Origin: Companilactobacillus heilongjiangensis
Lineage (GTDB): Bacteria > Bacillota > Bacilli > Lactobacillales > Lactobacillaceae
Length of the DNA stretch: 64,000 bases
Reading direction: 5' to 3'
Assembly: GCF_000831645.3 (NCBI RefSeq)
Contig: NZ_CP012559.1
Coordinates: forward strand, 2,294,001 to 2,358,000
The notes under the pieces are model-generated. The model saw nothing but the letters and a program-made list of their open reading frames with translations, was not told the DNA's origin and ran no database searches. The stretch's first letter is position 1; each line of letters begins with the position of its first letter. Position numbers and translations under genes: made by a program. Of the stretch, positions 3,012-46,664 are shown in pieces.

Positions 3012-3191
3012 TGCCGTCTCCGATTGTGGGGAATTTCGCCTGCTGTGAGACCGGTGCGAGCCAAGGTCTCGCGCCTCGCTTTTGAGCTTCGCAAAGTGCG
3101 CGAATCTCAAAAGACGTCTGTGCTGTAAGAGCAGAAAATCACTGCTCTAACACCACTTTCACTGCTGGTGAATTCCCCACAATCGGAGACT
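3012..3191 (-). repeat. family A structured repeat, copy A1
   Basis: Oriented opposite to copy A2. Outer arms GATTGTGGGGAATTTCGCC / GGTGAATTCCCCACAATC. The variable apical stem is AGAGCAG / CTGCTCT. The conserved core with GGTCTCG and GGTGCGAGCC is present. It lies just upstream of the Fur-family start codon. Confidence 0.85.
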
Positions 3192-3490
3192 AATCTCTCA
3201 ATATATCTTCAAACATATTTATATATATCATCGATTTGAATTATTAAAACCTTGCAAATCAATATAATAATTTAGCACTAAGTTATCTTCAAGTTGACTA
3301 TTCTATTAACGTTTTCGCTACTTAGTAGTATAGCATAATTAGTAATCTTTACGCTTTAGTTTGTTTTTTAGTTAGTCTTAAGGTCTATTTACTATTATAA
3401 TAACTAAAAAGATTTTAATTAAATAACATGTTGTGCAAGTTAAATATTCCATATCTATGAAGAATGAAATTAATGAGAATTAATTATATT
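3192..3490. other. AT-rich gene-free stretch
   Basis: No ORF of note. A TATAAT at about 3396 could be a -10 for the downstream two-component genes, but no convincing -35 accompanies it. Confidence 0.4.
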
Positions 3491-3512
3491 TCTCAGCTTC
3501 GCAGACGGCATC
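3491..3512 (+). repeat. solo right end of a family A repeat
   Basis: The sequence around 3492-3512 (CTCAGCT, then AGACGGCAT) matches the right terminus of full copies such as A2 and A13. No left part is present, so this looks like a remnant. Confidence 0.5.
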
Positions 3513-3542
3513 CCACAAAATAAACCATTGGGAGATTTGTTA

Positions 3543-4235
3543 ATGAAAAATACGATTTTAATTGTTGAAGATGAACGTAGTCTTTCCAGTTACGTCAGTA
3601 AAGAACTACAATTTGAGGATTTCGATGTCATCATTGCTAACGATGGCGTTGAATCTATGGAACTTTATGAAAAACATCAGAATGAATTGCTATTGATTTT
3701 GCTTGATTGGATGTTGCCTAAGTTGGATGGTATGGAAGTGCTCCGTCGCATTCGTAAACATGATCAAGTTCCTGTTATCGTTATGACTGCTCGTGATTAT
3801 ATTGGTGATAAAGTTGCTGGACTCGATAACGGTGCTGACGACTATATTACGAAGCCTTTTGAAATTGAAGAGCTTTTGGCACGTGTTCGGGTTATTCAAA
3901 GACGGGCCGAACATTTATCTGAACCGGACCAAACTTATCAAATTGCTGACCTAATTTTGAATACTAAGTCACACCAAGTTACTCGTAATGATGAAAATGT
4001 TCAGTTGACGAGACGTGAATATGATCTACTGTTATTCTTCCTGCAACATGTTGGACAAGTTTTTACACGTGATGAATTACTCGACAATGTTTGGGGTGAA
4101 GATTTCCTCGGACAACAAAATGTAGTCGATGTTTACGTTGGTTATCTGCGAAACAAGGTTGATGGCAAAAATAATCAAGCTTTGATTCAGACTATTCGTG
4201 GAGTTGGCTATTCAATCGAGGATGTGGCAGAATGA
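3543..4235 (+). CDS. OmpR/PhoB-type response regulator
   Basis: 230 residues. The receiver domain (about 1-120) carries acidic residues E9/D10, phospho-acceptor D55, T82 and K104. The C-terminal winged helix (about 130-230) ends in VVDVYVGYLRNKVD and IRGVGYSIE, typical of the OmpR class. An in-frame TTG at 3528 is possible, but the ATG at 3543 has GGGAG eight bases upstream and begins the canonical MKNTILIVEDE. The stop overlaps the histidine kinase start by four bases (ATGA), so the pair is translationally coupled. It resembles ArlR/CsrR-type regulators; targets are unknown. Confidence 0.95.
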   Translation: MKNTILIVEDERSLSSYVSKELQFEDFDVIIANDGVESMELYEKHQNELLLILLDWMLPKLDGMEVLRRIRKHDQVPVIVMTARDYIGDKVAGLDNGADDYITKPFEIEELLARVRVIQRRAEHLSEPDQTYQIADLILNTKSHQVTRNDENVQLTRREYDLLLFFLQHVGQVFTRDELLDNVWGEDFLGQQNVVDVYVGYLRNKVDGKNNQALIQTIRGVGYSIEDVAE

Positions 4236-5614
4236 CAGACACTCAAAAGTCGCCTTCCTATCAAGAGTTAATCAACAGCGCAATTCGCAAACTCGTTATT
4301 ATCATTACTTTATCAATTAGCGCAATAATTTTGGTTGTTGTCGGGATTCAGCAATATTCGCAAACTGTTCACGAAGCCAATGGTCAAATGATGAGTCTTT
4401 ATCGTTCCAATATTGATGACATTCCCGGTTTTATTCAATGGAGCAATCAGAATAATCGTCATACTAAACAGAACACGGTCATTCGTGTAAAAACCAATAA
4501 ATCGTCAATTACTGCCGCTTCCAACCGAGCCGGTCAAGAAATCATGACGACTTCTGCCTCTAAAAAATTTATCAATCAGCGAAAAGTTTTAATTTTGCCT
4601 GGTCAACATATCGTCTACGTTCAAGGTTACGGCTTCTTCCTCTTTTATACGAGAAAAGATGCCGATACGACCTATCAACTGTGGACTAGTTTGAGCCGCT
4701 TGATTAACAGTCTTCTATTATTATTGATAATTATCAGTATTATCGTCTTTGTCACCCTAGGATTCGGAACTTGGTGGGCTCAACAACTGGCTGCCAAATT
4801 GAGTGCTCCAACTATTGCCTTGGTTAAAGAAACCCGTAGTACCATCCCAGATACCGATCAACCAAGTTTGACAGTGCCTGACAGTCCCCAAGAAATTAAG
4901 GAACTGGGAGATGCCTTCAACGAATTACTAGAGGCCCAAAATCAACGATTGCAACGTGAGAAAGACTTTGTTTCCAACGCTTCCCACGAATTGAAAACAC
5001 CAATTGCAGCTATCCGTGGCAATATCAACTTAATTAAACGCCATGGTGACAAGCATCCCGATGTTATTCCTGAATCGCTGGGATTTATCGACGAAGAGTC
5101 CCTCCGCATGCAAAATCTGATTACCAACCTCTTACACTTGTCTCGAGCTGACCGAGCCGAATTAGTTTTGGAAAAAGTTAATTTATCTGAAATTGCCGAA
5201 CAAATTGGTAATCAATATCAAAAAGCTTTGGCACATGAACTGAAATTATCAATTACCCCTGGTCTGAATATTTCAGGTAATACCGACACATTGAAGCAAA
5301 TCATTGTCGCATTATTGGACAATGCTAATAAATATTCACCTGAGGACACGCCAATCACACTAGCTTTGGAGAAGAAAGCTGGCAAAATTAGATTATCAGT
5401 TAAAGATTTAGGCATGGGTATTCCTGATGATCAGAAGAAGCTGATTTTCCAACGTTTTTATCGAGTTGACACATCCCACTCTACCGAAATCAAGGGTAGT
5501 GGCTTGGGATTATCGATTGTTTCTCAGCTAGTTAAAATCAACAATGGCTCAATTGTAGTTTTAGACAATCAACCAAAAGGTTCTATTTTTGAAGTTAATT
5601 TTGATGAAGTCTAA
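4232..5614 (+). CDS. sensor histidine kinase, partner of the preceding regulator
   Basis: 460 residues. Membrane helices at about 19-41 and 157-180 enclose a ~115-residue extracellular sensor. A HAMP-like linker follows, then the HisKA domain with SNASHELKTP (His252). The ATPase domain shows the N box around DNANKYSPED (363-372), G1 DLGMGIPDD (392-400) and G2 GSGLGL (422-427). The protein should autophosphorylate at H252 and pass phosphate to D55 of the regulator. The signal is not recognisable from the sensor sequence. ArlS-like by overall layout. Confidence 0.95.
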   Translation: MTDTQKSPSYQELINSAIRKLVIIITLSISAIILVVVGIQQYSQTVHEANGQMMSLYRSNIDDIPGFIQWSNQNNRHTKQNTVIRVKTNKSSITAASNRAGQEIMTTSASKKFINQRKVLILPGQHIVYVQGYGFFLFYTRKDADTTYQLWTSLSRLINSLLLLLIIISIIVFVTLGFGTWWAQQLAAKLSAPTIALVKETRSTIPDTDQPSLTVPDSPQEIKELGDAFNELLEAQNQRLQREKDFVSNASHELKTPIAAIRGNINLIKRHGDKHPDVIPESLGFIDEESLRMQNLITNLLHLSRADRAELVLEKVNLSEIAEQIGNQYQKALAHELKLSITPGLNISGNTDTLKQIIVALLDNANKYSPEDTPITLALEKKAGKIRLSVKDLGMGIPDDQKKLIFQRFYRVDTSHSTEIKGSGLGLSIVSQLVKINNGSIVVLDNQPKGSIFEVNFDEV

Positions 5615-5631
5615 TTATTAAATTTATATGC

Positions 5632-5687
5632 AAAGAGGAACCCTATCATACTTGAGATAATCAGATATGGTAAGGTTCCTCTTTTTT
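5632..5687. terminator. bidirectional terminator between sensor kinase and fbp
   Basis: Stem AAAGAGGAACC / GGTTCCTCTTT with a T-run on the plus strand. The convergent fbp gene ends two bases away, so it probably serves both genes. Confidence 0.85.
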
Positions 5688-5688
5688 A

Positions 5689-7569
5689 TTACTTACTATT
5701 TAACTCCAAAATTAGTTCATCCATTTGTTGCTTAATCTTTTGACCAATATCAGTTTCGGCAACTAACTTTCGTTTAACTGACTGTTCAATCACACGCTTG
5801 GTTGAAACAACATCCTTCATTTCTTCAATCGCCTTGGCACGTGTCGTAAATGGTTCGTGAGTTACCAACTGCAATCCGTAAGAATTAGACAATAATGTAT
5901 AACCACCGATTCCTGTCGTCTTGTGATAAGGTTTCGACATGCCACCATCAATGACAAAAATCTTTCCATTGGCTTTAATTGGCGAAGTTCCAGCTTTGAC
6001 TGGCGTATGCCCGTTAATTATGTGACCTTCGTTGATATCCAATCCAAATTCTTGCAACAGTTGATCCGCAAACCATTCTTCTTTTCGTAATGAGTAATAT
6101 GGATTCAACTTTTCGATGTGCAATGCATCATCATTGATAAAATACCGTTCAAAAGTTGTCATCTTATCTTTTCCGAATAATGGTGACATTTTTCCGGTCC
6201 ATAAATACCAGATAATATCGGTATTGAAAGAGTCTTCCACAGCTGGATGTTGTAAAGCTTTTCGAATCATTTGGTCAAAATAGTCGAATAGTTGCTTACC
6301 AGCGTATGCTTTACCATTAATGACCAAGCCTTGTAATTGTCCGTTTTCATCAACCGGAATACAGCCATGCAACAATAAATTGCCATTATATTTGAGATAC
6401 ATTGAACCATTATCAACTAAATATTTTATATGCTTATTTAATTTCTGAGAATTAATAAATTGTTGAATCAAGTCATCGATTACAGCAGATTCTTCTGGAG
6501 TCAATGCATATGGATTTTCCATATCCACCAGTTGAAAACAGCCATCTTGTAATGGGTATGATTTTCCATGCAAAATAATCGACTTTTTATCTGAAGTCAG
6601 TTTATCCAGCAACAAACGATTCTCCATTTGAAAATCTGGATTACGTTTGATAGCAGCCCCTTCCAACTTGAATTGCATAATGGTTGCTGCCTGTTGAACA
6701 CAATTATCCTGAACTTTATTCGCAGTGGAAATGACTTCTCCAGTATCTGATTTAGGATTGAATGCCTCCAAAGGTTGATAATACTTAGTCGCCAATGCAA
6801 TTACCGAGGTCAAATCAATCCCATAGGAATCTTGCAGAATGGATAAATTATCGTAGCGCGCGCAAATTCGCAGTAAATTTAGCATGCACAATTTGGAGCC
6901 AGCAACGCTTCCCATCCATAAAATATCGTGATTACCCCACTGGAAATCAAAGTTTTGCCAATGATGCGCCAGATGTTCAATGATGTAATCCGGATGTGGC
7001 CCACGGTCATAAATATCACCAATTATATGAACGTGATCGACCACCAAACGTTGAATCGAATGACATGTGGCAATGATAAAATCATCAGCTTCGTGCAAAC
7101 TGACAATGCTCGTCATAATATCTTGATAATAATATTGCTTAGTTTCAGTATTCAAGTCCGCATAGAGCAGTTCTTCCGTAATATAAACAAACTCTGGAGA
7201 AATAGATTTCCTAACTTTTGAGCGAGTATATTTGTTGGCTGTATAACGTAAAACTTCAATTAAATTGTTGAAAATATCCATATACCATTGATTCAATTCA
7301 TCAGAATCATGCATCCGTGATTTGGTCTTAGTCAGAATTTCTGACGGATAATAAATTAAAAACGCCAACTTTTTCTGACTGGCAGGAGTTAATCGACCAG
7401 TGAATAATTCAGCTATTTTTTGCTTCGTATTACCTGATCCATTCCGCATGATGTGAGCAAATTCATCATATTCACCATGAACATCACTGACGAAAGCTTC
7501 AGTACCTTTGGGCAAACTCAAGATTGCGGATAAATTGATGATTTCTGACTTAATTTTATTTTGGTTCAT
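5689..7569 (-). CDS. fbp: fructose-1,6-bisphosphatase, class III
   Basis: About 626 residues, the usual size of the firmicute-type (class III) enzyme, which removes the 1-phosphate of fructose-1,6-bisphosphate in gluconeogenesis. Metallophosphatase motifs are visible: SDVHGEYDEF near the N-terminus, GDIYDRGPHPD and WGNHD in the middle, and GHTPVK near the C-terminus. An ATG at 7584 extends the ORF by five codons. The one at 7569 has GGGGAAG upstream and is preferred. The promoter overlaps a cre-like box, consistent with CcpA repression when glucose is present (inference). Confidence 0.95.
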   Translation of the reverse strand: MNQNKIKSEIINLSAILSLPKGTEAFVSDVHGEYDEFAHIMRNGSGNTKQKIAELFTGRLTPASQKKLAFLIYYPSEILTKTKSRMHDSDELNQWYMDIFNNLIEVLRYTANKYTRSKVRKSISPEFVYITEELLYADLNTETKQYYYQDIMTSIVSLHEADDFIIATCHSIQRLVVDHVHIIGDIYDRGPHPDYIIEHLAHHWQNFDFQWGNHDILWMGSVAGSKLCMLNLLRICARYDNLSILQDSYGIDLTSVIALATKYYQPLEAFNPKSDTGEVISTANKVQDNCVQQAATIMQFKLEGAAIKRNPDFQMENRLLLDKLTSDKKSIILHGKSYPLQDGCFQLVDMENPYALTPEESAVIDDLIQQFINSQKLNKHIKYLVDNGSMYLKYNGNLLLHGCIPVDENGQLQGLVINGKAYAGKQLFDYFDQMIRKALQHPAVEDSFNTDIIWYLWTGKMSPLFGKDKMTTFERYFINDDALHIEKLNPYYSLRKEEWFADQLLQEFGLDINEGHIINGHTPVKAGTSPIKANGKIFVIDGGMSKPYHKTTGIGGYTLLSNSYGLQLVTHEPFTTRAKAIEEMKDVVSTKRVIEQSVKRKLVAETDIGQKIKQQMDELILELNSK

Positions 7570-7647
7570 GAATTTCTTCCCCATTTCGGTGTATAGACCT
7601 TTCTTTATAAATGATGTTTATAGGCTAATTACTAGCACATGGTTAGA

Positions 7648-7684
7648 ACTATACCATTTAGAAAGCTCCGTGTAAACGGTACCA
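7648..7684 (-). promoter_or_regulatory. fbp promoter overlapped by a cre box
   Basis: Minus-strand -35 TTTACA (7671-7676), 17-bp spacer, -10 TATAGT (7648-7653). The 14-mer TGTAAACGGTACCA (7671-7684) matches the CcpA site consensus TGWNANCGNTNWCA at all but one position and covers the -35 box. Confidence 0.6.
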
Positions 7685-7756
7685 ATGGCATCGATGCGCT
7701 TGTGATATACTTATCCCAGTTTATAAATTACGTTTAAGTCATTTGGGGGACTAAAA

Positions 7757-7951
7757 ATGTTGCATGGATCAGTCATTTCAACATATAACGGTATGATTGC
7801 GTTTATTATTTTTATTATTATCAATATATTCATTACCATAGCCTATTGGTTAGCATTCCGTCATATCGAAAAATCAGCAGCTAGAGTAAGAAAAAATAAT
7901 AGTCAATTAAAACTAATCAAATATAAATTAACTAACGGAGGTAAGCAATAA
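7757..7951 (+). CDS. small single-helix membrane protein
   Basis: 64 residues: one long hydrophobic helix at about 14-36, then a basic, probably cytosolic tail ending KLIKYKLTNGGKQ. GGGGGA sits well placed before the ATG. No family is recognised. The stop overlaps the next small gene by one base. A frameshifted relative lies at 8202-8347, recognisable by the shared tail pattern KNN-x-LKLI-x-YKL. Size and topology would suit a holin-like protein, a type I toxin or a membrane-protein modulator, but nothing here decides between these. Confidence 0.75.
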   Translation: MLHGSVISTYNGMIAFIIFIIINIFITIAYWLAFRHIEKSAARVRKNNSQLKLIKYKLTNGGKQ

Positions 7952-8124
7952 TGTTGTTAGAAGTACTCGTAGTCATAACATTTATAATCACAGCATTTAT
8001 TGCTCTCGCCACGATACTGATAACTGTAATCTATACAATAACTAAACGTCCCCAAGTCAATAAAATAGCACGTGAAAACAAGAAGTTGGAATCGGAAATT
8101 TTGGATGAACTATCCGACAAATGA
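7951..8124 (+). CDS. small single-helix membrane protein, second of the pair
   Basis: 57 residues starting MLLEVLVVITF, with one transmembrane helix at about 4-30 and a charged tail (RENKKLESEILDELSDK) likely to be helical. The ATG overlaps the preceding TAA (TAATG), and GGAGG lies just upstream, so the two are translationally coupled. No family is recognised. Its position and design are mirrored by the third small gene at 8350-8520. Confidence 0.7.
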   Translation: MLLEVLVVITFIITAFIALATILITVIYTITKRPQVNKIARENKKLESEILDELSDK

Positions 8125-8201
8125 TTTTAAGACTATATATGACAATTACCGGTGTCACTTTTTAGAGTCCGTGGATCATAAAATAAATGGAGGAGCCCAA
8201 G

Positions 8202-8347
8202 ATGATTACTCTTATTTTTATTAATATATTGCTTATCATAGCCCTGCTTATACTGAACCGGACTTACAATAAGAGTTGGATGAGGCAAAAGAGAAAAATA
8301 ATCGATTAAAACTCATAGAATATAAACTTAACAAGAGCTGGTGGTAA
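8202..8347 (+). pseudogene. frameshifted copy of the first small membrane protein gene
   Basis: A good ribosome site (GGAGGAG) precedes an ATG that opens MITLIFINILLIIALLILNR and stops after 35 codons at 8309. A different frame from about 8276 to 8347 reads LDEAKEKNNRLKLIEYKLNK, matching the tail of the 64-residue protein at 7757. One frameshift near 8275 therefore probably broke an older duplicate. The 35-residue remnant could still be made as a bare membrane helix. Confidence 0.65.
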
Positions 8348-8349
8348 CG

Positions 8350-8520
8350 TTGCAAGAAAATTTGATATCTTCAATTTATTCACTTTCATCAATTACAGTT
8401 GGTATTGTTTTAGTTCTTTCTTCAATAAACTTTTTTATTAAATTTAAACAAATAAACAAACTAATTAAAGACAACGATAAAATATTAACGAGAATTATCA
8501 ACAAAATGTATGATAAATAG
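8350..8520 (+). CDS. small single-helix membrane protein with TTG start
   Basis: About 56 residues reading QENLISSIYSLSSITVGIV after a TTG start, with one membrane helix (about 12-31) and a Lys/Asn-rich tail. It lies 2 bp after the end of the frameshifted copy, as 7951-8124 follows 7757-7951, so the unit (long partner, short partner) appears duplicated. Upstream GGTGG could serve as the ribosome site. A terminator follows at 8599. Confidence 0.55.
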   Translation: MQENLISSIYSLSSITVGIVLVLSSINFFIKFKQINKLIKDNDKILTRIINKMYDK

Positions 8521-8598
8521 TTATCTGATTAACTTCTCTATTTGCTTTTTAAACCGTTAATAATAAAAATTCTTAATTATTATGTTTCCATACTTTAA

Positions 8599-8637
8599 GG
8601 TCTTCAATCATTAAATGTAATGATTGGAGGCTTTTTG
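8599..8637 (+). terminator. terminator of the small-membrane-protein cluster
   Basis: Stem CTTCAATCATTA / TAATGATTGGAG with loop AATG, followed by CTTTTT. Confidence 0.8.
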
Positions 8638-8649
8638 CTTTCCATAAAT

Positions 8650-8907: not shown

Positions 8908-9030
8908 AATTTTTATTGACCTCGTCTACTATTTAATAAATCTAATAATATCAACCTTATGTAAAGAAGCTGTAAATAGTAAGTAAAACATTGGTTAACA
9001 TCTTAGTTATCAAATTTGAAACCCACCTTT

Positions 9031-9218
9031 CATATATGCAGTGGCTCTAAAACGAGCTACACAAGGGCAACTCCTTCCGCTTTTCATGATTTTGTAAATC
9101 GCCCGCAAAAGCAGCGGGCAACTCACAAAACCACGAAAATGCTCGGGAGCTGGACGCCCTGTCTCCGATCTCTGATATGCTCTCTAAGAATTTCTTATAT
9201 AAACCTTATCAAACCTAG
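9031..9218 (+). repeat. family B structured repeat, copy B1
   Basis: Begins with the short hairpin GGCTCTAAAACGAGC, then AGGGC...GCCCT outer pairing and a GCTTTTC / GAAAATGC stem. The central arms (TTTTGTAAATCGCCCGC / GCGGGCAACTCACAAAA) are particular to this copy. The tail, CTCTCTAAGAATTTCTTATAT and following, is shared with B2. It fills the gap before the first acid ligase gene. Confidence 0.8.
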
Positions 9219-9323
9219 GTAGTTGCATAACCTCTTCCCTTGTAAACTATGGTTATTCAATCGAAAGGACATCGATTTAAGTAATAATCCTCCCCATGAT
9301 TCCACTTAAATCTGGTAAAACTT

Positions 9324-12414: not shown

Positions 12415-12460
12415 ATTTATATTCTATTAAAATTTAATATTTATTAAAGCCAGTAAACCT

Positions 12461-12640
12461 AGTCGGAAGAGATGAGAGTATTCACCCGCTATGAAAGTGG
12501 CGTTATGGCTTTAGCCATTACACCACCGGGCGTGTTGAAGCCTTGCCTGTCTTGCAAGGCTTCAACCGAGGTTCGAGACCGCACTTTGGCTCGGGCCGTT
12601 CCGCATAGTGGGCGAAATACTCTCATCTCTGGAGACGGCA
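12461..12640 (+). repeat. family A structured repeat, copy A2 (reference orientation)
   Basis: Left end AGTCGGA, right end GGAGACGGCA. Outer arms AGAGATGAGAGTATT / ATACTCTCATCTCT. Hairpin 1 has apical stem ATGGC/GCCAT inside GTGGCGTT...TTACACCAC. Hairpin 2 is a perfect 12-bp stem GTTGAAGCCTTG / CAAGGCTTCAAC. Hairpin 3 is GGTTCGAG / CTCGGGCC. Its right end abuts the stop codon of the Crp/Fnr gene. Confidence 0.9.
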
Positions 12641-13285
12641 TTAAAGAATAGTAAACTCACGTCGATCCAATTTAATTTTATCTTCCGCGACTAATTGTTT
12701 TAACTGACGGCTGAGTGTTTCTGGGGTAATTCCTAAATACTGAGCCAACTCTTTCTTAGTAACTGGCAACTTATACGTTTGATTGCCGAATTGGCTTCGT
12801 AACTCCAACAAATAATTATATAAACGTTCCCTTGACGTCAACAAAGTATCGGTCACATCCCGTTGCTCCAACGAAGTCAACCGTTCACCCAGCACATCGA
12901 CTAGTGACAAAGCCATTTCTGGATATTCTTTCAGCACATCTTTGAACGCGCTCTGTTTCAAGTAACATATCTCAGTTGGTTCGGCGGCTTGAGCAAAATT
13001 GTGATGCTCGTGGTTGGTAAATAAGGCTCCTGTTAAATCCACTTCTCGCGACCGCAACATGTAAAGTGTCCGTTCACGGTCATCATCAGCGTAACTATAA
13101 ACTCGTACTCTACCAGAATCGACTATCATCAAGCGGTCATTGGGTTCTCCCGCCGAATAAATCATCTGCCCAGCCACAATCTTTTTCTGATGAACTGAAA
13201 CACGTGCCAATGCTTCAATCACACTCTTTGGAGCACCTTTGAAGATAGAAACTTGTTCCACGCATTTAATCGGATCGTGTGCCAT
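12641..13285 (-). CDS. Crp/Fnr-family regulator, Flp-like
   Basis: 214 residues: cyclic-nucleotide-binding-like beta-barrel (about 10-125), dimer helix (about 125-150), and HTH with ELAQYLGITPETLSRQLKQL near 175-195. Only two cysteines occur, C8 and C107. This recalls the redox regulator Flp of Lactobacillus casei, where an intramolecular disulfide controls DNA binding (known of that protein, inferred here). A perfect palindrome, TTGACATATGTCAA, lies 18 bp upstream of the start, between this gene and the divergent 13389 gene. The stop codon touches repeat A2, and the probable terminator lies beyond the repeat. Confidence 0.9.
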   Translation of the reverse strand: MAHDPIKCVEQVSIFKGAPKSVIEALARVSVHQKKIVAGQMIYSAGEPNDRLMIVDSGRVRVYSYADDDRERTLYMLRSREVDLTGALFTNHEHHNFAQAAEPTEICYLKQSAFKDVLKEYPEMALSLVDVLGERLTSLEQRDVTDTLLTSRERLYNYLLELRSQFGNQTYKLPVTKKELAQYLGITPETLSRQLKQLVAEDKIKLDRREFTIL

Positions 13286-15321: not shown

Positions 15322-15505
15322 ATCAATATCCCCCTTGATTGACTCCAATTCTATTCGACAAAGCTGTATTTGCCGAGAACGTGACAGTTGCACTTACTTT
15401 GTAAGGTAAATTATACCGTTATGATATCGTTATAAAATATGATACAGAATAAGACATCGCTTTTAAATAGCTATTTTCTATAAGTCTGTTATAACCAACT
15501 AAACT

Positions 15506-15680
15506 AGCCGGAGGTCGCAAGAGAATTCACCCGCAGTGAAAGTGGAGTTGGGGCTTTAGCCCTTACTCCACAGGACGACTTTTGAGACGCGGTTTTCGGC
15601 TCAAAAGCGAGATTCGAGACCGCTCCCTGGCTCGGACCGGTCCCACAGCAGGCGAAATTCTTTTGCGACCTCCGGCGGCA
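15506..15680 (+). repeat. family A structured repeat, copy A3
   Basis: Outer arms GGTCGCAAGAGAATT / AATTCTTTTGCGACC. Apical stem GGGC/GCCC inside GTGGAGTT...TTACTCCAC, here fully paired. Hairpin 2 CTTTTGAG / CTCAAAAG differs from A2 but is complementary. Right end GGCGGCA. Confidence 0.9.
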
Positions 15681-15686
15681 TCCTAA

Positions 15687-19578: not shown

Positions 19579-19749
19579 ATTGAATAAGGTTAATATAAGA
19601 AAATCTTAGAGAGCGAAACAAGGGCGGTCAGCTCCCGAGCATTTTTGTAGATAAGTAAATCGCACGCAAAATCGGCATGCAATTTACTTATCTACAAAAA
19701 GCGGAAGAAGTTGCCCTTGTGTAGCTCGTTTTAGAGCCACTGCCTATAT
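19579..19749 (-). repeat. family B structured repeat, copy B2
   Basis: Reverse orientation of B1. Central arms GTAGATAAGTAAATCGCACG / GCATGCAATTTACTTATCTAC are complementary but unlike B1. The shared flanks GCTCGTTTTAGAGCC, GCTCCCGAGCATTTTT and the CTTATATTAACCTTATT tail are present. Confidence 0.8.
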
Positions 19750-19816: not shown

Positions 19817-19890
19817 ATAATCAAATACCATCAAACCAAATCAACTAAATATTTTTAAAGTCCAAATGACCCGATTTTATATAAAAACCC

Positions 19891-20080
19891 AGCCTCCGGG
19901 TGACAGTGATGGAGCCAGCAGTGGAAAGTGTCGTTAGAACGAGCGAACTTCTCGTTCTTACAACACTAGGACGACTTTTGAGACGTGGGCTTCGGCTCAA
20001 AATCGAGGCCCGAGACCGCCTTTCGGCTCGGACCGGTCCCAACTTGCAGGCTGCAATCACTGTCACCCGGAGGCGGCATA
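19891..20080 (+). repeat. family A structured repeat, copy A5
   Basis: Outer arms CTCCGGGTGACAGTGAT / ATCACTGTCACCCGGAG (perfect). Apical stem AGAACGAG/CTCGTTCT. Core GGCCCGAGACC / GGCTCGGACC. Same arm type as A10. Confidence 0.9.
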
Positions 20081-30841: not shown

Positions 30842-30888
30842 TGCGTATTCCTCCAAATCGTATTTACTTTCATTCTAAACTATTTGAT

Positions 30889-31064
30889 GACTCCGGTCGC
30901 CAGAAATATAGTCCTACAGTGAGGACCGAGCCGAGCCAAGGTCTCGTCTCTCGCTTTGAAGCCTTGCCACAGTCCGGCAAGTCTCCAAAGTCGCCCTGTG
31001 GTGTAACGGCTGAAGCCGTAACGCCACCTCCACTGTATGACTATATTTCTGGTGACCTCCGACT
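30889..31064 (-). repeat. family A structured repeat, copy A7
   Basis: Outer arms GTCGCCAGAAATATAGTC / GACTATATTTCTGGTGAC. Apical stem ACGGC/GCCGT. Conserved GAGCCAAGGTCTCG core. Reverse orientation, in the region upstream of the SDR gene. Confidence 0.9.
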
Positions 31065-31139
31065 AATGTATTTTTTTATTTATAAAAATTAATATTTGAA
31101 TATAAACTTATTCGATTCGGTTTTGTTAAAATTATAGAC

Positions 31140-33760: not shown

Positions 33761-33944
33761 TGTCCGTCTCCAGGGATAAGAATATTCACCTGCTATGCAG
33801 ACCGATTCGAGCCACAGTACGGTCTCGAATCTCGGTTTGAAGCCTTACCAAAACCCGGTAAGTCTCCAAACACGCCCGGTGGTGTAACGGCTAAAGCCGT
33901 AACGCCACACCCACAGCTGGTGAATATTCTTATCCCTTCCGACT
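33761..33944 (-). repeat. family A structured repeat, copy A8
   Basis: Perfect 18-bp outer arms GGGATAAGAATATTCACC / GGTGAATATTCTTATCCC. Apical stem ACGGC/GCCGT. Hairpin 2 around GAAGCCTTACC / GGTAAG. First of three full copies within 0.9 kb. Confidence 0.9.
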
Positions 33945-34062
33945 CATTTAAATGATTTCGTGGTTACTCAGACTGAATAAGCCTTAAATAAAACTTTTGT
34001 ATCAAAACGGCTGAGTACAAAAACATTTGAATACTTCCACATTCAATTAATATCGATTATCT

Positions 34063-40419: not shown

Positions 40420-40505
40420 TTTATTACACAACCAAATCATCTTTCAACAAGTGGTTTTGGTAAAAAATATTTAGGGTTTAAAAAATTTCCAAGGGGGAAA
40501 TATAT

Positions 40506-42317
40506 ATGGTTAAAACAAAAACAAAGCTAGCCTCAGTTGCAATCACTTTTCTAGCAGCCCTCACACTAGCTGGATGTTCTAACAATAGCAGCTCAGAAAG
40601 CTCCGATGCAGCTGTTAAACTTTCAACAGCCTATAACAACAAAGCTGCTACAAATAAAAATGCTACTAAGAACGGTACTTTGAAGTTAGCTATCGTTAAT
40701 AACGCTCCATTCCAAGGTATCACCGATCCTATTCTTGCTTCTAACGCTGAAGATGCTGAGGCCTTTGCACCCGGTGGTCAAAACAATTTGTTCAACGTTG
40801 ACAAGAACTACAAGATCATCGATGGTGGACTTGCTAATCAAAAACTTGACCGTAAAGCTAAAACTGCCACAATTACAATCCGTAAGGATGCTAAGTGGTC
40901 AAACGGCTCACCTGTTACTGCTAAAGACGTTGAATACGCTTATGAAGTTTTAGGTAACAAAGAAACTACCTCACAACAATATTCATCTGACTTCGAAGAT
41001 ATCGAAGGTATGACTGAATATCACAAGGGTAAGGCTGATACTATCTCAGGTATCACATTCCCAGACGGTGAAACTGGTAAAGTTGCTGTCATCCACTTCA
41101 AGCAAATGGCTCCAAGTATGAAGTTCTCTGGTAACTCATACATCTGGGGTTCAATTGAACCTTACGAATACATCAAAGATGTTCCTATCGCTAAATTGGC
41201 TTCTTCAGAACAAATCCGTAAGAACCCTATCTTTGTCGGACCTTACAAGTTGGATAAAGTCGTTGAAGGTGAATCAACATCATGGTCACCAAACAAGTTC
41301 TACTACGGAAAGAAAGCCCAAATCGGTCACATTACTTTGAACGTTGTTTCAATGAATAATATCGACAAAGCTCTTCAATCTAAGAAGTACGATACAGTTG
41401 CTCCATCAGTTGCTGGTGCACTTGGTGGTACTGACTACAAGAACTTGAAGAACCTTAAAGGATACTCAAAAGTTGGACAACCTGCTTTAGGTTACAGTTA
41501 CTTTGCCTTTAACTTAGGTCACTACGATACTAAGACTGGTAAGAACGTTGCTGATCCAAACAAGAAGATGGCTAACAAGAGTCTTCGTCAAGCTATGATG
41601 TATGCTCTAAACGTTGACCAAGTTTCAAAGAAATTTGGTAATGGTATCAAGTGGCGTGCTAATACTTTGCTCCCACCAGTATTTAACAAGTACTACGACA
41701 AGTCTGCTAAGGGTTACCCACTAAACATCAAGAAAGCTAACAAGTTACTTGATGATGCTGGTTACAAGAAACGTAACGGTAGCAAGTGGCGTTCAGATCC
41801 AAAGGGTAAGAAACTCGTTATCTACTTCGGTGCTATGACAAGTAGTGCTACTACAGAAGCTACATACCAAGATTATCTACAACAATGGCACAAGGTTGGT
41901 TTGGACGTTAAATACACTAGCGGCAAGCCAGTTGAAATGAACAGTTTCTACGATACTCTTCAAAAGCCAGAACAAAACAAGATGGATATCTGGTTAGGTG
42001 CATGGTCATTATCATCAGAACCATCACAATCACAATTGTACGGTGATACTGCTGCATTCAACATGGGTCACTTTACAACTGCTAAGAATACTAAGTTGAT
42101 CAACCAAATGAATGATAATGGTGCTTGGAACGATAAGACACGTGCTAAGACATTCAAAGAATGGCAAGAATACATGAACAACCAAGCTGGTGTTGTCGGT
42201 GAACAATTTAACTACGCATGGCAACCAGTTAACAACCGTGTTAAAGGATTCGATCTTAGCCCTGCTAACGATGAATTCTACAGTAACCTTACATTGACTT
42301 CTTCGAAGTTGAAGTAG
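40506..42317 (+). CDS. oppA: oligopeptide-binding lipoprotein
   Basis: 603 residues. Signal peptide with lipobox LAGC (Cys24), anchoring the protein to the outer face of the membrane. SBP_bac_5 domain features: ITIRKDAKWSNGSPVTAKDVEYAYEVL and LRQAMMYALNVDQV. It captures peptides for OppBCDF. AAGGGGG precedes the ATG. The 163-base gap before it sets it apart from the tightly packed oppDFBC. Codon use is strongly biased (AAG, TAC, GAC, AAC), as expected for a highly expressed gene. Confidence 0.95.
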   Translation: MVKTKTKLASVAITFLAALTLAGCSNNSSSESSDAAVKLSTAYNNKAATNKNATKNGTLKLAIVNNAPFQGITDPILASNAEDAEAFAPGGQNNLFNVDKNYKIIDGGLANQKLDRKAKTATITIRKDAKWSNGSPVTAKDVEYAYEVLGNKETTSQQYSSDFEDIEGMTEYHKGKADTISGITFPDGETGKVAVIHFKQMAPSMKFSGNSYIWGSIEPYEYIKDVPIAKLASSEQIRKNPIFVGPYKLDKVVEGESTSWSPNKFYYGKKAQIGHITLNVVSMNNIDKALQSKKYDTVAPSVAGALGGTDYKNLKNLKGYSKVGQPALGYSYFAFNLGHYDTKTGKNVADPNKKMANKSLRQAMMYALNVDQVSKKFGNGIKWRANTLLPPVFNKYYDKSAKGYPLNIKKANKLLDDAGYKKRNGSKWRSDPKGKKLVIYFGAMTSSATTEATYQDYLQQWHKVGLDVKYTSGKPVEMNSFYDTLQKPEQNKMDIWLGAWSLSSEPSQSQLYGDTAAFNMGHFTTAKNTKLINQMNDNGAWNDKTRAKTFKEWQEYMNNQAGVVGEQFNYAWQPVNNRVKGFDLSPANDEFYSNLTLTSSKLK

Positions 42318-42408
42318 TCAATGGGCTCCGTTATTCATAATCAATTGGCTGTTCTCCCATATTACACACACATAAAAAAATAGCTAATTGGTTGTTTTAA
42401 AACCTCAG

Positions 42409-42463
42409 AAAAAGCTGAAACACTTGGATAATTCCCGATCCAAGCTGCTTCAGCTTTTTTGTT
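42409..42463. terminator. opp operon terminator, usable on both strands
   Basis: AAAAAGCTGAA / TTCAGCTTTTTT with inner TTGGAT / ATCCAA stem. On the minus strand it would also end the flavodoxin transcript beyond repeat A12. Confidence 0.85.
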
Positions 42464-42491
42464 GTTTTTATAATTTGAATTCTTTAGTTCC

Positions 42492-42664
42492 TGCCGCCGG
42501 AAGGTGCAAGATAGTCCCCTGCTGTGTGACCGGTGCGAGCCAAGGTCTCGCGCCTCGATTTTGAGCTTCGCATAGACCGCGAATCTCAAAATACGTCAGT
42601 GGAGTAAGGACTAGAGTCCTAACACCACTTGCACTGCTGGTGGACTATCTTGCACCTTCCGGCT
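42492..42664 (-). repeat. family A structured repeat, copy A12
   Basis: Outer arms GGAAGGTGCAAGATAGTCC / GGACTATCTTGCACCTTCC (perfect 19 bp). Apical stem AGGAC/GTCCT. Core GGTGCGAGCCAAGGTCTCGCG. Lies between the flavodoxin stop codon and the terminator. Confidence 0.9.
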
Positions 42665-42710
42665 CTTGTATTCAATTATTGTTTGTTTTGTGTATTATTA
42701 CTTACCATTA

Positions 42711-43163
42711 CTATTTATCGCTTAAAAAGGCCTTTAATTGGGTATCATTATTATCATACCTAAAGCCCTCAGTCACCTTACTATTAGCCGCTACCTTTCT
42801 TACATCTGGCATCGATTCGGCAACTGATGAACTGCCACTTGTTATGAATGGAACAACTGTCTTTTCACTGAAATCATACTTCTCAAATAATGTATGGAAT
42901 AGCATTGGCATCTTGCCGTTCCATGTTGGATAGCCTAGATAAATCGTGTCATAATTTGCCAAATCTGGAATCTCAGTTTTTAAAGCTGGATGAATTTGGT
43001 CTTCGAATTCCTTTTGGGCAACCGGAACGTAATTGCTGTACCCTTCTGGATATGATGTAACTGGTTGTAAACGAACGATGTCTGCGTCGGTGATTTCTTG
43101 AATCTTTTCAGCAGCTTTTTTTGTATTATTTGATAGTGAAAAATAGATGATTAATTTCTTCAT
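42711..43163 (-). CDS. flavodoxin-like protein
   Basis: 150 residues. N-terminal KKLIIYFSLSNNTKKAAEKI is the FMN phosphate loop of flavodoxins, followed by YLGYPTWNGKMPMLF and FITSGSSSVAES, the isoalloxazine-contact loops of the 'flavodoxin_4' group. A small electron carrier or quinone/NAD(P)H-linked reductase; its partner is unknown. Confidence 0.9.
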   Translation of the reverse strand: MKKLIIYFSLSNNTKKAAEKIQEITDADIVRLQPVTSYPEGYSNYVPVAQKEFEDQIHPALKTEIPDLANYDTIYLGYPTWNGKMPMLFHTLFEKYDFSEKTVVPFITSGSSSVAESMPDVRKVAANSKVTEGFRYDNNDTQLKAFLSDK

Positions 43164-43314
43164 AGATGTACTCTCCTCATTTTGATACTTAACAATTTAA
43201 AACCCGTTTCCATATTATTGAACAGCAACAAATTATCTAATGATTAAAAGATATCGTCGCTGAGAACATACCCAGTTAATTTGATTAGTTATCTAATTAT
43301 TATAAAGATAATTT

Positions 43315-43495
43315 AGTTGGAAGAGCTGAGAGTATTCATCCGCAGCGAAAGTGGCGTTAGAGCTTTAGCTCTTACACCACCGGGCGTGTTGGAGACTTAC
43401 CGGGTTTTGGTAAGGCTTCAACCGAGGTCCGAGACCGCTCTTTGGCTCGGACCGTTCCGCGCAGCAGATGAATGCTCTCAGCTCTGGAAACGGCA
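43315..43495 (+). repeat. family A structured repeat, copy A13
   Basis: Outer arms AGAGCTGAGAGTATTCATC / GATGAATGCTCTCAGCTCT. Apical stem AGAGC/GCTCT. Core GGTCCGAGACC / GGCTCGGACC (perfect). Nearly identical to A14. Confidence 0.92.
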
Positions 43496-43601
43496 TTCTA
43501 TATACCCCAAAGTTTAGACCTTAAAGTACACTTCAAAGCAAGCATTTTGTCGTTGTGCTATCCTTAATATATGTCTATTTTGAGGAGAGATTAATTTAAA
43601 A

Positions 43602-44171
43602 ATGAATATTGAAGAAGATTCATCGTACCAGCAAATGATCAATGGGGAGTTATACCTAGAGTCAAAGGACTTAGCTGCCTTACGTGATGACGTTCGTGTT
43701 AAATTGATGGACTACAATCGTATTGCCAACAATGACGAACGTAACAGCAAGATCAAGAGTTTGATGAAATCGGTCGGCGATAGATTCTTTGTTGAACCAA
43801 CGATTTACTTTAGCTACGGAGTTAACATTACGATTGGTAACCATTTCTACGCTAACCACGATGTAATGCTCTGTGACGAAGGTAAAATCACTATCGGTAA
43901 TGATGTTAAGTTTGGACCTAAAGTCGGTCTCTACACTCCACAGCACCCATTGGACCCATCGGTTCGTCGGACTGAAGCTGAAAGAGTTTCACCTATTACT
44001 ATCGGTAATGACGTTTGGGTCGGCGGTGGCGCAAGCATCTTACCAGGTGTCACTTTGGGAAATAATGTCATCGTTGGTGCCGGATCTGTCATTACACATT
44101 CATTCCCTGACAACGTTATTGTTGTTGGAAATCCTGCTCGTATTCTTAGAGAAAATAAACCCGAAAAATAA
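43602..44171 (+). CDS. maltose/galactoside O-acetyltransferase-like hexapeptide transferase
   Basis: 189 residues: N-terminal Mac domain (about 1-55, YQQMINGELYLESKDLAALRD), then left-handed beta-helix hexapeptide repeats (ITIGNHFYANHDVMLCD, ITIGNDVWVGGGASILPGVTLGNNVIVGAGS). The acetyl-CoA site is near the C-terminus, VVGNPARIL. Acetylates the 6-OH of sugars, possibly to detoxify non-metabolised ones. Confidence 0.9.
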   Translation: MNIEEDSSYQQMINGELYLESKDLAALRDDVRVKLMDYNRIANNDERNSKIKSLMKSVGDRFFVEPTIYFSYGVNITIGNHFYANHDVMLCDEGKITIGNDVKFGPKVGLYTPQHPLDPSVRRTEAERVSPITIGNDVWVGGGASILPGVTLGNNVIVGAGSVITHSFPDNVIVVGNPARILRENKPEK

Positions 44172-44180
44172 AGTTAATAC

Positions 44181-44222
44181 AAAAATGGAGCTACTAATTA
44201 TGATTAGCAACTCCATTTTTTT
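44181..44222. terminator. bidirectional terminator
   Basis: AAAAATGGAG / CTCCATTTTT stem with inner CTAAT / ATTAG, between convergent genes. Confidence 0.85.
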
Positions 44223-44231
44223 GTAGAATTT

Positions 44232-44840
44232 TTATGCCTTACGACTAATAGCTAAACTATCGTGTGAACCTAGCTTTCCGTTATGTGCTAGGCGAACTAC
44301 AAGGTCAGCTACACTGCTGCTGGCAACTGTATCTGTTTTAGACAAACCACCTTTGCGGACGATTTCATAATTATCGACATCTTGTCCATTATCTAACCAA
44401 GTTGGGCGAACGACCGTGTAATTTAAATCTGAAGCAGCAATTGCGTAAACTACTTGTTGATATGGTGCCAAAATTTCACCATCGTTCAAATTACCTGACG
44501 CACCGTTTGTAGTTGGTACTTCATTGTAAAGTCCCATTGATGTTAAGAATATGAAGCGTCTGACTCCCTCTTTGTCCATTGCATCAATAATCTTTTGAAT
44601 CAACAGCTCTTCATTGCTATCGAGTGATACTAATACCACGTCAACGCCTTTCATAGCGCTATCCAAAATTTCTTCATCAATAATGTCTCCTTGAAATACA
44701 CGTTCACGTTTTTCATCGATTGTTAAAAGTCCTGTGTAGCGTGCCATCAAAGTAATATTATCATCAGTTTTGTCCAAGAAAAATTTCGTCGCTTTTTGCC
44801 CCATTAAGCTTGTTGCGCCAATAATTAATACATTTGCCAT
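44232..44840 (-). CDS. NAD(P)-binding atypical SDR (NmrA/YwnB-like)
   Basis: 202 residues. N-terminal Rossmann loop VLIIGATSLMGQKATKFF, FLTSMGLYNEVP in the middle and YTVVRPTWLDNG later, with no classical YxxxK. This group includes redox sensors and epimerase-like proteins; the function is unknown. A quinone or thiol stress link is common for relatives but is inference here. Confidence 0.88.
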   Translation of the reverse strand: MANVLIIGATSLMGQKATKFFLDKTDDNITLMARYTGLLTIDEKRERVFQGDIIDEEILDSAMKGVDVVLVSLDSNEELLIQKIIDAMDKEGVRRFIFLTSMGLYNEVPTTNGASGNLNDGEILAPYQQVVYAIAASDLNYTVVRPTWLDNGQDVDNYEIVRKGGLSKTDTVASSSVADLVVRLAHNGKLGSHDSLAISRKA

Positions 44841-44920
44841 TTACTCTACCTCCGATTGTTTTACCTCTCTGTTACACGTCTATCCTAAACCTTTCTTGGA
44901 AATCTTGCTGGAATCAACAA

Positions 44921-44958
44921 AATAAGCCGATAATCTTTTTTTCGATTATCGGCTTATT
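44921..44958 (-). terminator. long perfect hairpin, probable terminator of the baeRF gene
   Basis: Fifteen-base perfect stem AATAAGCCGATAATC / GATTATCGGCTTATT with an eight-base loop; TTTTG follows on the minus strand. It lies beyond repeat B3 from the baeRF stop codon. Confidence 0.6.
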
Positions 44959-45013
44959 TGTGGTTGTATGGTTGCACTACTTGGTTGGAAAATTTGATGA
45001 ATGGTTTTGGTTC

Positions 45014-45196
45014 TATACTGCTGTGGCTCTAAAACGAGCTATACAGGCTCGCTCTGCTCTCTACCTTGAAACGAGCTACGACAGGGCAACTCCTTCCGCT
45101 TTTCACAACTAAGCAAATCGCCCGCTAAGTTCGGCGTGCAATTCACTTAGTTATGAAAATGCTCGGGAGCTGACCGCCCTGTCTCCGCTCTCTCTA
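45014..45196 (+). repeat. family B structured repeat, copy B3
   Basis: Central arms AACTAAGCAAATCGCCCGC / GCGTGCAATTCACTTAGTT are unlike B1 and B2 but complementary. The left part contains an internal duplication of the AAACGAGCTA segment. The right end CTCTCTAA supplies the stop codon of the baeRF gene. Confidence 0.8.
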
Positions 45197-46258
45197 ATAC
45201 AATATAGCATTCATACTAGGATAACTATTGTCGCCTGGTGTATATAGAACTCGACAATTGATTTTATTGATCAAGGATTTAATCAGTAATTTATTATGCT
45301 CTACTGAATATGAACTTCCATCGTTAAACGAAACTAATGATTTAACATCCCGATTGTTTAAAGCAAGGTCAATAATACTCAAGTCATTGATAACTCTATT
45401 CTTTTCCCCGGCGGCTTTGACATTATTCTTTACTTGTTCCACTTCAGCAATTCTTTCAAAAGCGAAGTAATCATTTACTCTTTCGGCTAACTCTGCACGG
45501 GACAGATTCATGACTGATCCATGCATGATTCCACCGATATAAGGACTATTCTTGTACGACTTCAAATATACATCTAATGTTTCTGACAAACCTGCTAACA
45601 CAAATGTATAGCCTTTTGTCCGGTTTAAATTCGTTAACTCTTTATCTAAATATTGGTAATAGATACTTTGATCTTTTTGTTGCTCTTCAGATTTAGTACG
45701 GTGTCCGTGATACGTTGCTGTCAGACCTCCATATGAACCAGAATTCACATTGGAATTAGCGTCAAAGTCTGAATAGTAGTCGGAAAATCTCGTGTGCAGG
45801 TCAGGTAATTCGACTTCTTTCAAACTATTAATATCAATAACGTTAACGCGGTCACGACTGATATTTAGCAAGTAATCTGGTCTCTTAACATTCTCTTCGG
45901 GTAGCAAGAGATCTTGAATCAAGAAAGTATTTCCAACATGTTCTTTGGCTAAAACTGTATGTTCCATGGCTCTGATTTCCATGTTATCATTGTTGGCAAA
46001 AATCAATAAGGCTCTTTTATCTGAGTTCCATAATTTTCTATCAAGGATCAGGGATTCGAGATTTTTTACTGCGTTATTCCATTCCCGACGTGGATAATTT
46101 AGTTCTAGGTCTTTTTTGACATCCTTCAAAAGATTTTTGTAGGCAAGTAAGTTAGTTTCTGCCTGAGGAGTTTCCGGATGAATCGGTAAGATAATGCTGA
46201 TTTTTGGTTCGTTATCGGATGTTAAAAGCTTCATTAGGTTATCGTTTTTTAATTTCAT
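45194..46258 (-). CDS. baeRF-family-like protein (bacterial archaeo-eukaryotic release-factor fold)
   Basis: 354 residues. The N-terminal ISIILPIHPETPQAETNLLAYKNLLKD, a middle YHGHRTKSEEQQKDQSIYYQ, and the C-terminal GLSETLDVYLKSYKNSPY, RVNDYFAFERIAEVEQ and CRVLYTPGDNSYP resemble bacterial proteins with eRF1/Pelota-like domains. Their role is unclear; ribosome rescue or stress hibernation has been proposed. Single gene; the stop codon lies in repeat B3. Confidence 0.65.
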   Translation of the reverse strand: MKLKNDNLMKLLTSDNEPKISIILPIHPETPQAETNLLAYKNLLKDVKKDLELNYPRREWNNAVKNLESLILDRKLWNSDKRALLIFANNDNMEIRAMEHTVLAKEHVGNTFLIQDLLLPEENVKRPDYLLNISRDRVNVIDINSLKEVELPDLHTRFSDYYSDFDANSNVNSGSYGGLTATYHGHRTKSEEQQKDQSIYYQYLDKELTNLNRTKGYTFVLAGLSETLDVYLKSYKNSPYIGGIMHGSVMNLSRAELAERVNDYFAFERIAEVEQVKNNVKAAGEKNRVINDLSIIDLALNNRDVKSLVSFNDGSSYSVEHNKLLIKSLINKINCRVLYTPGDNSYPSMNAILY

Positions 46259-46359
46259 AGTTCATCTCCTTATCTAAAATCTTATCGTTATCATTAGTAT
46301 ATTGTAATATTATCATGATGTAGTCAATTTGTCTAACATTTTAATAATTATTTTGATAA

Positions 46360-46392
46360 AAAAATACGATAGTCTTTTTAAGACTACCGTAA
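46360..46392 (-). terminator. terminator of the second aldo/keto reductase, beyond repeat A14
   Basis: Minus strand ACGGTAGTCTT / AAGACTATCGT hairpin followed by ATTTTTTT. It is the first terminator after the 46680 gene, with A14 in between. Confidence 0.65.
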
Positions 46393-46484
46393 CTACTACT
46401 CTTCTATTTGATTACAAAGGTCACTTATGATTGATCCATCAAATAGTAAAAGTGGATTCATATAGAACATACAAAAAATAAATT

Positions 46485-46664
46485 AGTTGGAAGAGCTGAG
46501 AGTATTTATCCGCAGCGAAAGTGGTGTTATGGCTTTAGCCATTACACCACCGGACGTGTTGGAGACTTTCCGGTTTTTGGAAAGGCTTCAACCGAGGTCC
46601 GAGACCGCCTTTTGGCTCGGGCCGTTCCGCGCAGCAGATGAATACTCTCAGCTCTGGAAACGGC
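46485..46664 (+). repeat. family A structured repeat, copy A14
   Basis: Outer arms AGAGCTGAGAGTATTTATC / GATGAATACTCTCAGCTCT. Apical stem ATGGC/GCCAT. Core GGTCCGAGACC / GGCTCGGGCC. Compared with A13, the arm and apical-stem changes are largely compensatory. Confidence 0.92.

What the first reader, a model, noticed from the sequence alone, without database searches (positions are those of the whole stretch)
3012..46664. Family A: a dispersed ~180-bp multi-hairpin element, at least 12 full copies in 44 kb
Copies A1-A3, A5 and A7-A14 share termini (TAGYYGGA on the left, GGAGACGGCAT or close on the right) and a layout of outer stem, variable hairpin, second hairpin, and a GGTCCGAGACC...GGCTCGGACC core hairpin. 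They lie only between genes, in both orientations, at about one per 3.6 kb. They are much more GC-rich than their surroundings. I do not recognise the family; the design recalls BOX, REP or MITE elements but the sequences differ.
Basis: seen in the sequence. Interest (0 to 1): 0.88.

Follow-up and report, generated by a model that had tools for sequence, protein, structure and literature searches.

The report
Mobile folded-RNA repeat in food bacteria
The window holds twelve copies of a jumping DNA repeat, present hundreds of times in this lactic-acid bacterium, whose body folds into an elaborate RNA shape that stays intact although its letters change; it rides on the ends of a known type of transposon, and I found no earlier description of it.

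Summary
Confirmed: 12 full copies (175-197 nt), no Rfam match. The genome (2.79 Mb; genus Companilactobacillus) holds roughly 600 (86 hits in 400 kb of evenly spaced samples). On a sequence-only alignment of 75 copies, 74 of them not used to derive the fold, 96.5% of paired cells pair (slid control at most 41%) and 42 of 65 pairs change on both sides. G-U is tolerated over A-C (162:47), pointing to an RNA read from TAG to GGCAT; a second genus gave the opposite ratio in a small set. In close relatives the fold is the body of 310-350-bp units with terminal inverted repeats CTRAAGGTTGAAAG and 7-9-bp target duplications (15 of 25 units; 0.7 expected). IS4-family transposases carry the same ends, so it is a MITE of an IS4-type element, of which no copy was found in the window's genome. 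Shared copies stay conserved beside decaying TAG-side DNA. Copies under 500 nt apart are mirror pairs (37 of 38), as in another genus, where the whole pair is the repeated unit. Mobility is well supported; what the RNA does is inferred: most likely a structural barrier at gene borders. New variant of a known kind.

The parts
3011..3192 (-). full copy of the structured core
   Evidence: R1 155.5 bits
12460..12641 (+). full copy of the structured core; its last base is also the last base of the stop codon of the ORF 12641-13285(-)
   Evidence: R1 178.7 bits; ORF list
15505..15681 (+). full copy; beyond the GGCAT end a terminator-like hairpin with its T-tract facing the element (by eye)
   Evidence: R1 164.4 bits; flank
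19890..20079 (+). full copy; terminator-like hairpin with T-tract facing the GGCAT end (by eye)
   Evidence: R1 137.8 bits; flank
30884..31065 (-). full copy with a short loop in hairpin 3
   Evidence: R1 167.5 bits; alignment
33761..33945 (-). full copy, left member of a mirror (-)(+) pair
   Evidence: R1 196.8 bits; pair list
33946..34061 (.). 116-nt AT-rich spacer of the mirror pair; a second composite copy with a longer, diverged spacer lies near 368.5-369.1 kb of the same genome
34062..34258 (+). full copy, right member of the mirror pair; 195-197-nt subfamily with a long first hairpin and a conserved upstream stretch
   Evidence: R1 167.7 bits
34446..34640 (+). full copy, 187 nt from the previous one in the same orientation (the one ++ neighbour)
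   Evidence: R1 159.4 bits
35804..35988 (+). full copy
   Evidence: R1 193.1 bits
42491..42665 (-). full copy
   Evidence: R1 164.1 bits
43314..43496 (+). full copy, reference for the structure numbering
   Evidence: R1 197.9 bits
46484..46666 (+). full copy, 92% identical to 43314-43496 with unlike flanks
   Evidence: R1 193.0 bits

Best explanation
Family A is the body of a non-autonomous DNA transposon (a MITE). SHOWN: complete units of about 310-350 bp in close relatives have terminal inverted repeats CTRAAGGTTGAAAG, 7-9-bp target duplications, an AT-rich left arm and the 180-nt core; IS4-family elements with the same ends sit in the relative that has most such ends of the three tested. 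INFERRED: an IS4-type transposase acting in trans, of which no copy was found in the window's genome, spread them. SHOWN: the core keeps one RNA fold (an outer stem of about 20 bp, hairpin 1, and a short helix that carries hairpins 2 and 3) by changes on both sides of pairs; in this genome G-U is tolerated over A-C on the TAG-to-GGCAT strand; copies shared by two species stay conserved while the TAG-side DNA next to them decays; close copies stand as mirror pairs with GGCAT ends outward. INFERRED: the part that matters is the RNA made from transcription that leaves the spacer towards a neighbouring gene. Each core then works as a folded barrier at a gene border that stalls, cleaves or silences transcripts entering from the intergenic side, so that insertions are tolerated and kept. 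No spacer promoter was detected, so the transcripts would be read-through or pervasive ones.
For: MITE: TIR hits in G010 (C. huachuanensis) 539 against 15 for the reversed pattern, G006 39:14, G002 28:9. Of 25 distinct TIR-bounded units from these three genomes 15 have exact 7-9-bp direct repeats at their ends; shuffled flanks give 0.7. Transposase pieces that match NF049925 (IS4 family, 268 and 290 bits, cut-off 250) lie between such TIRs in G010 (1442 and 1451 bp), and another between perfect TIRs in G020; a related Loigolactobacillus backii plasmid element with a complete annotated CDS has ends CTGAAACTTGAAAG. Filled and empty sites between G000 and G010. RNA: on 75 copies, 74 not used to derive the 61 model pairs, 42 of 65 pairs with changes on both sides, 96.5% cells paired, covariation 0.452 against 0.168 +/- 0.005 shuffled and at most 0.085 slid. 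Strand: 107 non-window copies GU 162, AC 47; pairs supported on both strands GU 84, AC 30; nearest-neighbour changes 99 to GU, 25 to AC, 294 double. Constraint: six shared copies, core identity 0.78-0.97 against 0.50-0.79 on the TAG side. Pairs: 37 of 38 are (-)(+).
Against: No transcript was seen; no RNA data were at hand. In a second genus (G193) the strand test runs the other way (GU 17, AC 35; 32 copies, few lineages). Mutation biases in unpaired columns: C>T 4 of 317, G>A 22 of 956, T>C 61 of 943, A>G 26 of 1170, which does not favour G-U; between nearest neighbours C>T 94, G>A 61, a mild bias in its favour. Outward promoters are not enriched in the TAG-side flank (score >= 10.5: outward 73, inward 71 of 120). 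No bias to gene starts or stops (GGCAT end faces a start 59 times, a stop 54). Block exchange between copies may keep cores alike without selection on each. One of the six shared copies has unlike DNA on both sides (0.50, 0.32) and may be two independent insertions; two further candidates (core 0.73 and 0.57) were set aside, and a ninth was listed but not aligned. The IS4 copies seen in the genus are split over two frames, cut short or fragments. Most old G000 copies keep no recognisable TIR.
Confidence: 0.45

Rival explanations
1. Purely selfish MITE: the fold is needed only for mobility or for the safety of the donor copy, and individual inserted copies have no function. Shared structure reflects descent from a few active masters, and exchange between copies homogenises them.
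Against: Cores outlast their TAG-side flank after species divergence; paired columns diverge less than unpaired ones between nearest neighbours (0.092 against 0.157).
Confidence: 0.3
2. The mirror pair is the real mobile unit and the core is a transposition RNA (bridge or omega-like) read outward into flanking DNA, which guides insertion next to terminators.
For: In G193 the pair with its spacer is repeated as a unit: type A 7 copies, about 81-93% identical where aligned, two lacking part of the spacer, with 6 of 7 left ends 2-4 nt after a T-tract (by eye; two of the six have near-identical flanks and may be one event). In G000 terminators point at the GGCAT end within 40 nt in 18 of 122 copies, away from it in 3.
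Against: No associated protein was found; the Companilactobacillus units carry one core and show ordinary TIRs and TSDs, and coreless units also moved.
Confidence: 0.1
3. A DNA-level cause: palindromes kept complementary by hairpin-templated repair or cruciform selection, with no RNA role.
For: 294 double changes between nearest neighbours against 200 changes to a non-Watson-Crick state; long outer stems; G193 strand counts do not favour the same RNA strand.
Against: It should treat G-T and A-C alike, but G-U exceeds A-C 162:47, 84:30 and 99:25 in G000.
Confidence: 0.15

Closest known systems
Bacterial MITEs of IS elements (review PMC10969869; passages seen)
   Same: TIRs, 7-9-bp direct repeats, no gene, mobilised by an IS with the same ends, intergenic, able to fold.
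   Different: A multi-branched core with strong covariation and, in this genome, a strand preference; about 600 copies; mirror pairs; relatives of the core in other genera whose ends look different by eye.
BOX, RUP and SPRITE of Streptococcus pneumoniae (PMC3049150; passages seen)
   Same: Dispersed intergenic folded repeats in a Firmicute; BOX and RUP fold with their TIRs paired; enriched between convergent genes.
   Different: Sequences differ as recalled; not aligned here. The passage's table lists tens of each in the contexts counted.
bcr1-bcr18 of Bacillus cereus (PMC3446304, PMC2267715; passages seen)
   Same: Intergenic repeats, some MITE-like and some with conserved folds, partly transcribed in UTRs.
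   Different: bcr1 is listed at 12 to 31 copies; other taxon; no mirror pairing in the passages seen.
EFAR repeats of Enterococcus faecalis (recalled; one search listed no paper about them)
   Same: Recalled as about 170-bp folded intergenic repeats of a lactic-acid relative, acting as terminators.
   Different: Not compared; rests on memory.
REP/BIME/REPIN with RAYT (PMC2817692, PMC3116915, PMC3733652; search listings only)
   Same: High-copy intergenic palindromes, in BIMEs in alternating orientation.
   Different: REPs are 20-40 bp; their transposase does not track this family.

Membership tests
MITE of an IS4-family element | terminal inverted repeats | tested here: met
   CTRAAGGTTGAAAGTT 539 hits against 15 control in G010; 25 distinct bounded units. 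Not recognisable at most old copies of the window's genome.
MITE of an IS4-family element | target-site duplication | tested here: met
   15 of 25 units with exact 7-9 bp, 0.7 expected from shuffled flanks
MITE of an IS4-family element | partner transposase gene with the same ends | tested here: met
   IS4_4 transposase pieces between TIRs in G010, a homologue in G020; none found in the window's genome
MITE of an IS4-family element | movement by that transposase | not testable with these tools
   needs a transposition assay
REP/REPIN | associated Y1 (RAYT) transposase | tested here: not met
   PF01797 in 16 of 31 genus genomes, not in G002 and G006 with many copies
any Rfam family | match to its covariance model | tested here: not met
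   window: only rRNA and tRNA at gathering scores; 1-48000 up to E 5, no match at any copy; distant members: matches lie outside the element or below the gathering score
BOX (S. pneumoniae) | boxA-boxB-boxC sequence modules | not tested
   no BOX model used
IS256-driven element | IS256 transposase present | tested here: not met
   PF00872 in 0 of 4 genomes

The most novel reading that the evidence does not exclude
A previously undescribed structured RNA class of Lactobacillales, older than the IS4 MITE that now carries it: mirror pairs of the RNA stand at gene borders in at least three genera, each inserted copy is kept by selection on its RNA, and about 4% of a genome has been recruited as two-way RNA borders between genes.
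Probability: 0.25. Interest if true: 0.85.

Novelty: new variant of a known kind. Interest (0 to 1): 0.62.

Why it matters
A non-coding mobile element makes up about 4% of a food bacterium's genome (600 x 185 nt, estimate) and gives a very clean within-genome covariation signal. It makes testable whether MITE bodies are functional RNAs after insertion or only baggage, and whether bacteria use such repeats as borders between genes. The complete unit and its IS4 partner are now defined, so the movement can be tested directly.

Tried and rejected
RAYT/IS200 driver: presence of PF01797 does not follow copy number. IS256 driver: not found. A 3275-bp TIR pair in G006 around a DinG-like helicase ORF (name by eye, no family search) was first thought autonomous; its flanks show no duplication. 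Orientation relative to genes: no bias in sampled copies, so a leader or riboswitch role was dropped. Promoters in the spacer: not enriched. Pairs as recent inverted duplications: members are no more alike than random copies (median 0.69 against 0.71, none above 0.77; 32 pairs with both members full length). A terminator role of the reverse strand (core followed by TAATTTATTTTTT; the stretch before TAG is conserved) fits the T-tract but not the G-U preference; left open. The first terminal-repeat search in G000 gave weak signal. The all-against-all of left flanks was confounded by partner cores and its output was cut, so it was not used for counts. Spacer similarity in G000 links only spacers beside 195-197-nt or 106-nt copies.

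Rows dropped: of 105 matches, 19 opposite-strand echoes were removed, leaving 86 (some of them 106-nt short forms or cut by a stretch end). One sampled 20-kb stretch without a hit (L076) is left out of the 564 kb and of the gene-context counts; with it the sample is 584 kb. The G193 tally leaves out two hits under 90 nt (L240:6656, L242:4618). Strand counts use pairs at least 70% or 60% Watson-Crick. One search uses the 94 copies with a neighbour at 80% identity or more.

Full report
OBSERVATION. A MAFFT alignment of 12 window copies folds to 61 pairs, 39 of them with at least one sequence changed on both sides. The model R1 finds the same 12 copies and no other full copy in the window. Rfam gives only rRNA and tRNA at gathering scores and no match at a copy up to E = 5 (bases 1-48000). 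In the window's own genome (one contig, 2,790,548 bases) the search reported 150 matches, the number it scored, at 164.6-199.7 bits. Twenty evenly spaced 20-kb stretches hold 86 non-redundant hits in 400 kb (19 echoes removed), which scales to about 600, about 4% of the genome.

WHO CARRIES IT. Of 41 genomes (own, 24 of the genus, 16 of other genera of the order) 23 have hits: 22 of 25 of the genus, and one weak hit outside. A protein of the window finds 15 loci, 14 of them titled Companilactobacillus; equal contig lengths make G010 C. huachuanensis and G006 C. nantensis. An order-wide search (198 genomes) found hits in 8: the own genome, three genomes of two other genera of the family (best 83, 65 and 47 bits) and four genomes of other families (27-41 bits). 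Their folds show the same plan: long outer stem with hairpins inside, often with the GAGAC...GGCTC motif (by eye). A 106-nt short form lies on a Limosilactobacillus reuteri plasmid.

THE FOLD IS REAL AND IS KEPT. The structure from the 12 window copies plus one extra helix was tested on a sequence-only alignment of one window copy and 74 sampled copies. The extra helix (four pairs) was itself chosen on non-window copies, so its counts are not independent. Of the cells 96.5% form standard pairs (shuffled 80.7%; slid by 1-3 columns 36.8-41.0%); 42 of 65 pairs have changes on both sides; covariation score 0.452 (shuffled 0.168, slid at most 0.085); 0 of 500 shuffles reach any of the five observed values.

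WHICH STRAND. In 107 non-window copies, over 56 pairs, G-U 162 and A-C 47. With pairs supported by folding on both strands: 84 and 30. Between nearest neighbours: 99 and 25, with 294 double changes. A DNA palindrome would give equal numbers. Unpaired columns show no bias that favours G-U (C>T 4 of 317, G>A 22 of 956; T>C 61 of 943, A>G 26 of 1170) and a mild one (C>T 94, G>A 61). Against: in G193 the ratio is reversed, 17 and 35, in 32 copies that fall into few lineages.

IT MOVES. G010 contig C7 is colinear with 490-630 kb of the window's genome in blocks at 79-95% identity. The G000 block has 45 hits, C7 has 20. Several sites are filled in one and empty in the other, and the inserts exceed the core. 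In G010 many carry terminal repeats: CTRAAGGTTGAAAGTT has 539 matches in G010 against 15 for the reversed pattern. Among 25 distinct TIR-bounded units from G010, G006 and G002, 15 have exact 7-9-bp duplications, 0.7 expected. By my motif test 15 contain the core (316-347 bp). Of the other ten, six are 116-196 bp; four are 310-349 bp, at least one of them with a core by the model (G010:C7). IS4-family transposase pieces lie between the same ends in G010 (1442 and 1451 bp), a homologue lies between them in G020, and a related L. backii element has a complete annotated CDS and similar ends. In the genus the transposase was found in 5 of 36 genomes, split, cut or fragmentary, and not in the window's. 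So the window's copies look like an old expansion, and C. huachuanensis shows a younger one (inference).

AFTER INSERTION. Eight of nine listed candidate shared copies were aligned. Two were judged doubtful (core identity 0.73 and 0.57). In the other six the core is 0.78-0.97 identical, the 150 nt on the TAG side 0.50-0.79, the 60 nt on the GGCAT side 0.83-0.95 in five and 0.32 in one, which may be two independent insertions. Inside shared copies whole stems change on both sides, for example in hairpin 3 of 92188/98076. This shows constraint or exchange; it does not tell them apart.

MIRROR PAIRS AND TARGETS. Among 132 hits in 564 kb, neighbours less than 500 nt apart are (-)(+) in 37 of 38 cases; intergenic regions with two copies are (-)(+) in 37 of 38. 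Singles have the GGCAT end nearer a gene in 31 of 37, in 24 after allowing 75 nt for the left arm. In G193 I count 14 (-)(+) among 17 close neighbours (2 ++, 1 --), and there the pair with its spacer is itself the repeated unit. G200 has one such pair. Terminators pointing at the GGCAT end within 40 nt: 18 of 122; pointing away: 3; on the TAG side 2 and 0. At 41-100 nt the TAG side has 11 and 13, which fits unit ends there. Six of seven G193 type A left ends follow a T-tract (by eye; two of the six share near-identical flanks).

HOW IT MIGHT WORK. Shown: mobility by classical ends in relatives, a kept fold, a strand preference in one genus, constraint beside decaying flank, mirror pairs. Inferred: the RNA is made when transcription leaves the spacer towards a gene, and the fold acts as a border. 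No spacer promoter supports directed transcription. A selfish MITE without later function remains a serious rival.

LITERATURE. Searches in the held library listed no paper that describes this family; subscription papers are mostly missing from it. I saw passages of PMC10969869, PMC2267715, PMC3446304, PMC3049150 and PMC2864571, and search listings of the rest. The EFAR comparison rests on memory.

Noticed in passing
window 9032-9183, 19598-19749 (inverted), 45069-45193: A second dispersed repeat family of about 150 bp (AAACGAGCTAC...GGGCAACTCC...CTCGGGAGCTG...CCCTGTCTCC), three copies, 75-83% alike.
   Followed up: no
G000 stretches, e.g. L068:3977-4082, L068:16511-16616, L075:14541-14646, L064:5424-5529: A 106-nt short form (44-52 bits) that seems to keep the outer stem and one hairpin; a similar form lies on an L. 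reuteri plasmid (L224:98-203).
   Followed up: partly
L249:4072-4237 and L250:4716-4881 (G153, another family): Two distant members with the same flanks, which hold further inverted repeats (GGGACTGGGAAATAA / TTATTCCCAGCTCC), possibly carried by a different transposon.
   Followed up: no
L229:1760-1828 (G153): Rfam Bacillus-plasmid RNA (RF01691) above its gathering score, next to a distant member but outside it.
   Followed up: no
L235-L242 (G193), type A spacers: The spacer holds its own inverted repeat (CACGACAAATTTAAAAATAGGCGC...GCGCCTATTTTAAAATTTGTCGTG), so the whole element is a large imperfect palindrome (by eye).
   Followed up: no
G006: L194-L197: TIR-bounded units of 116-184 bp that lack the core motif, three of the four with exact 7-9-bp duplications: the core seems not needed for movement.
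   Followed up: partly
window 12641: The last base of the copy 12460-12641 is also the last base of the stop codon of the neighbouring ORF, so insertion may have set that gene's end.
   Followed up: no
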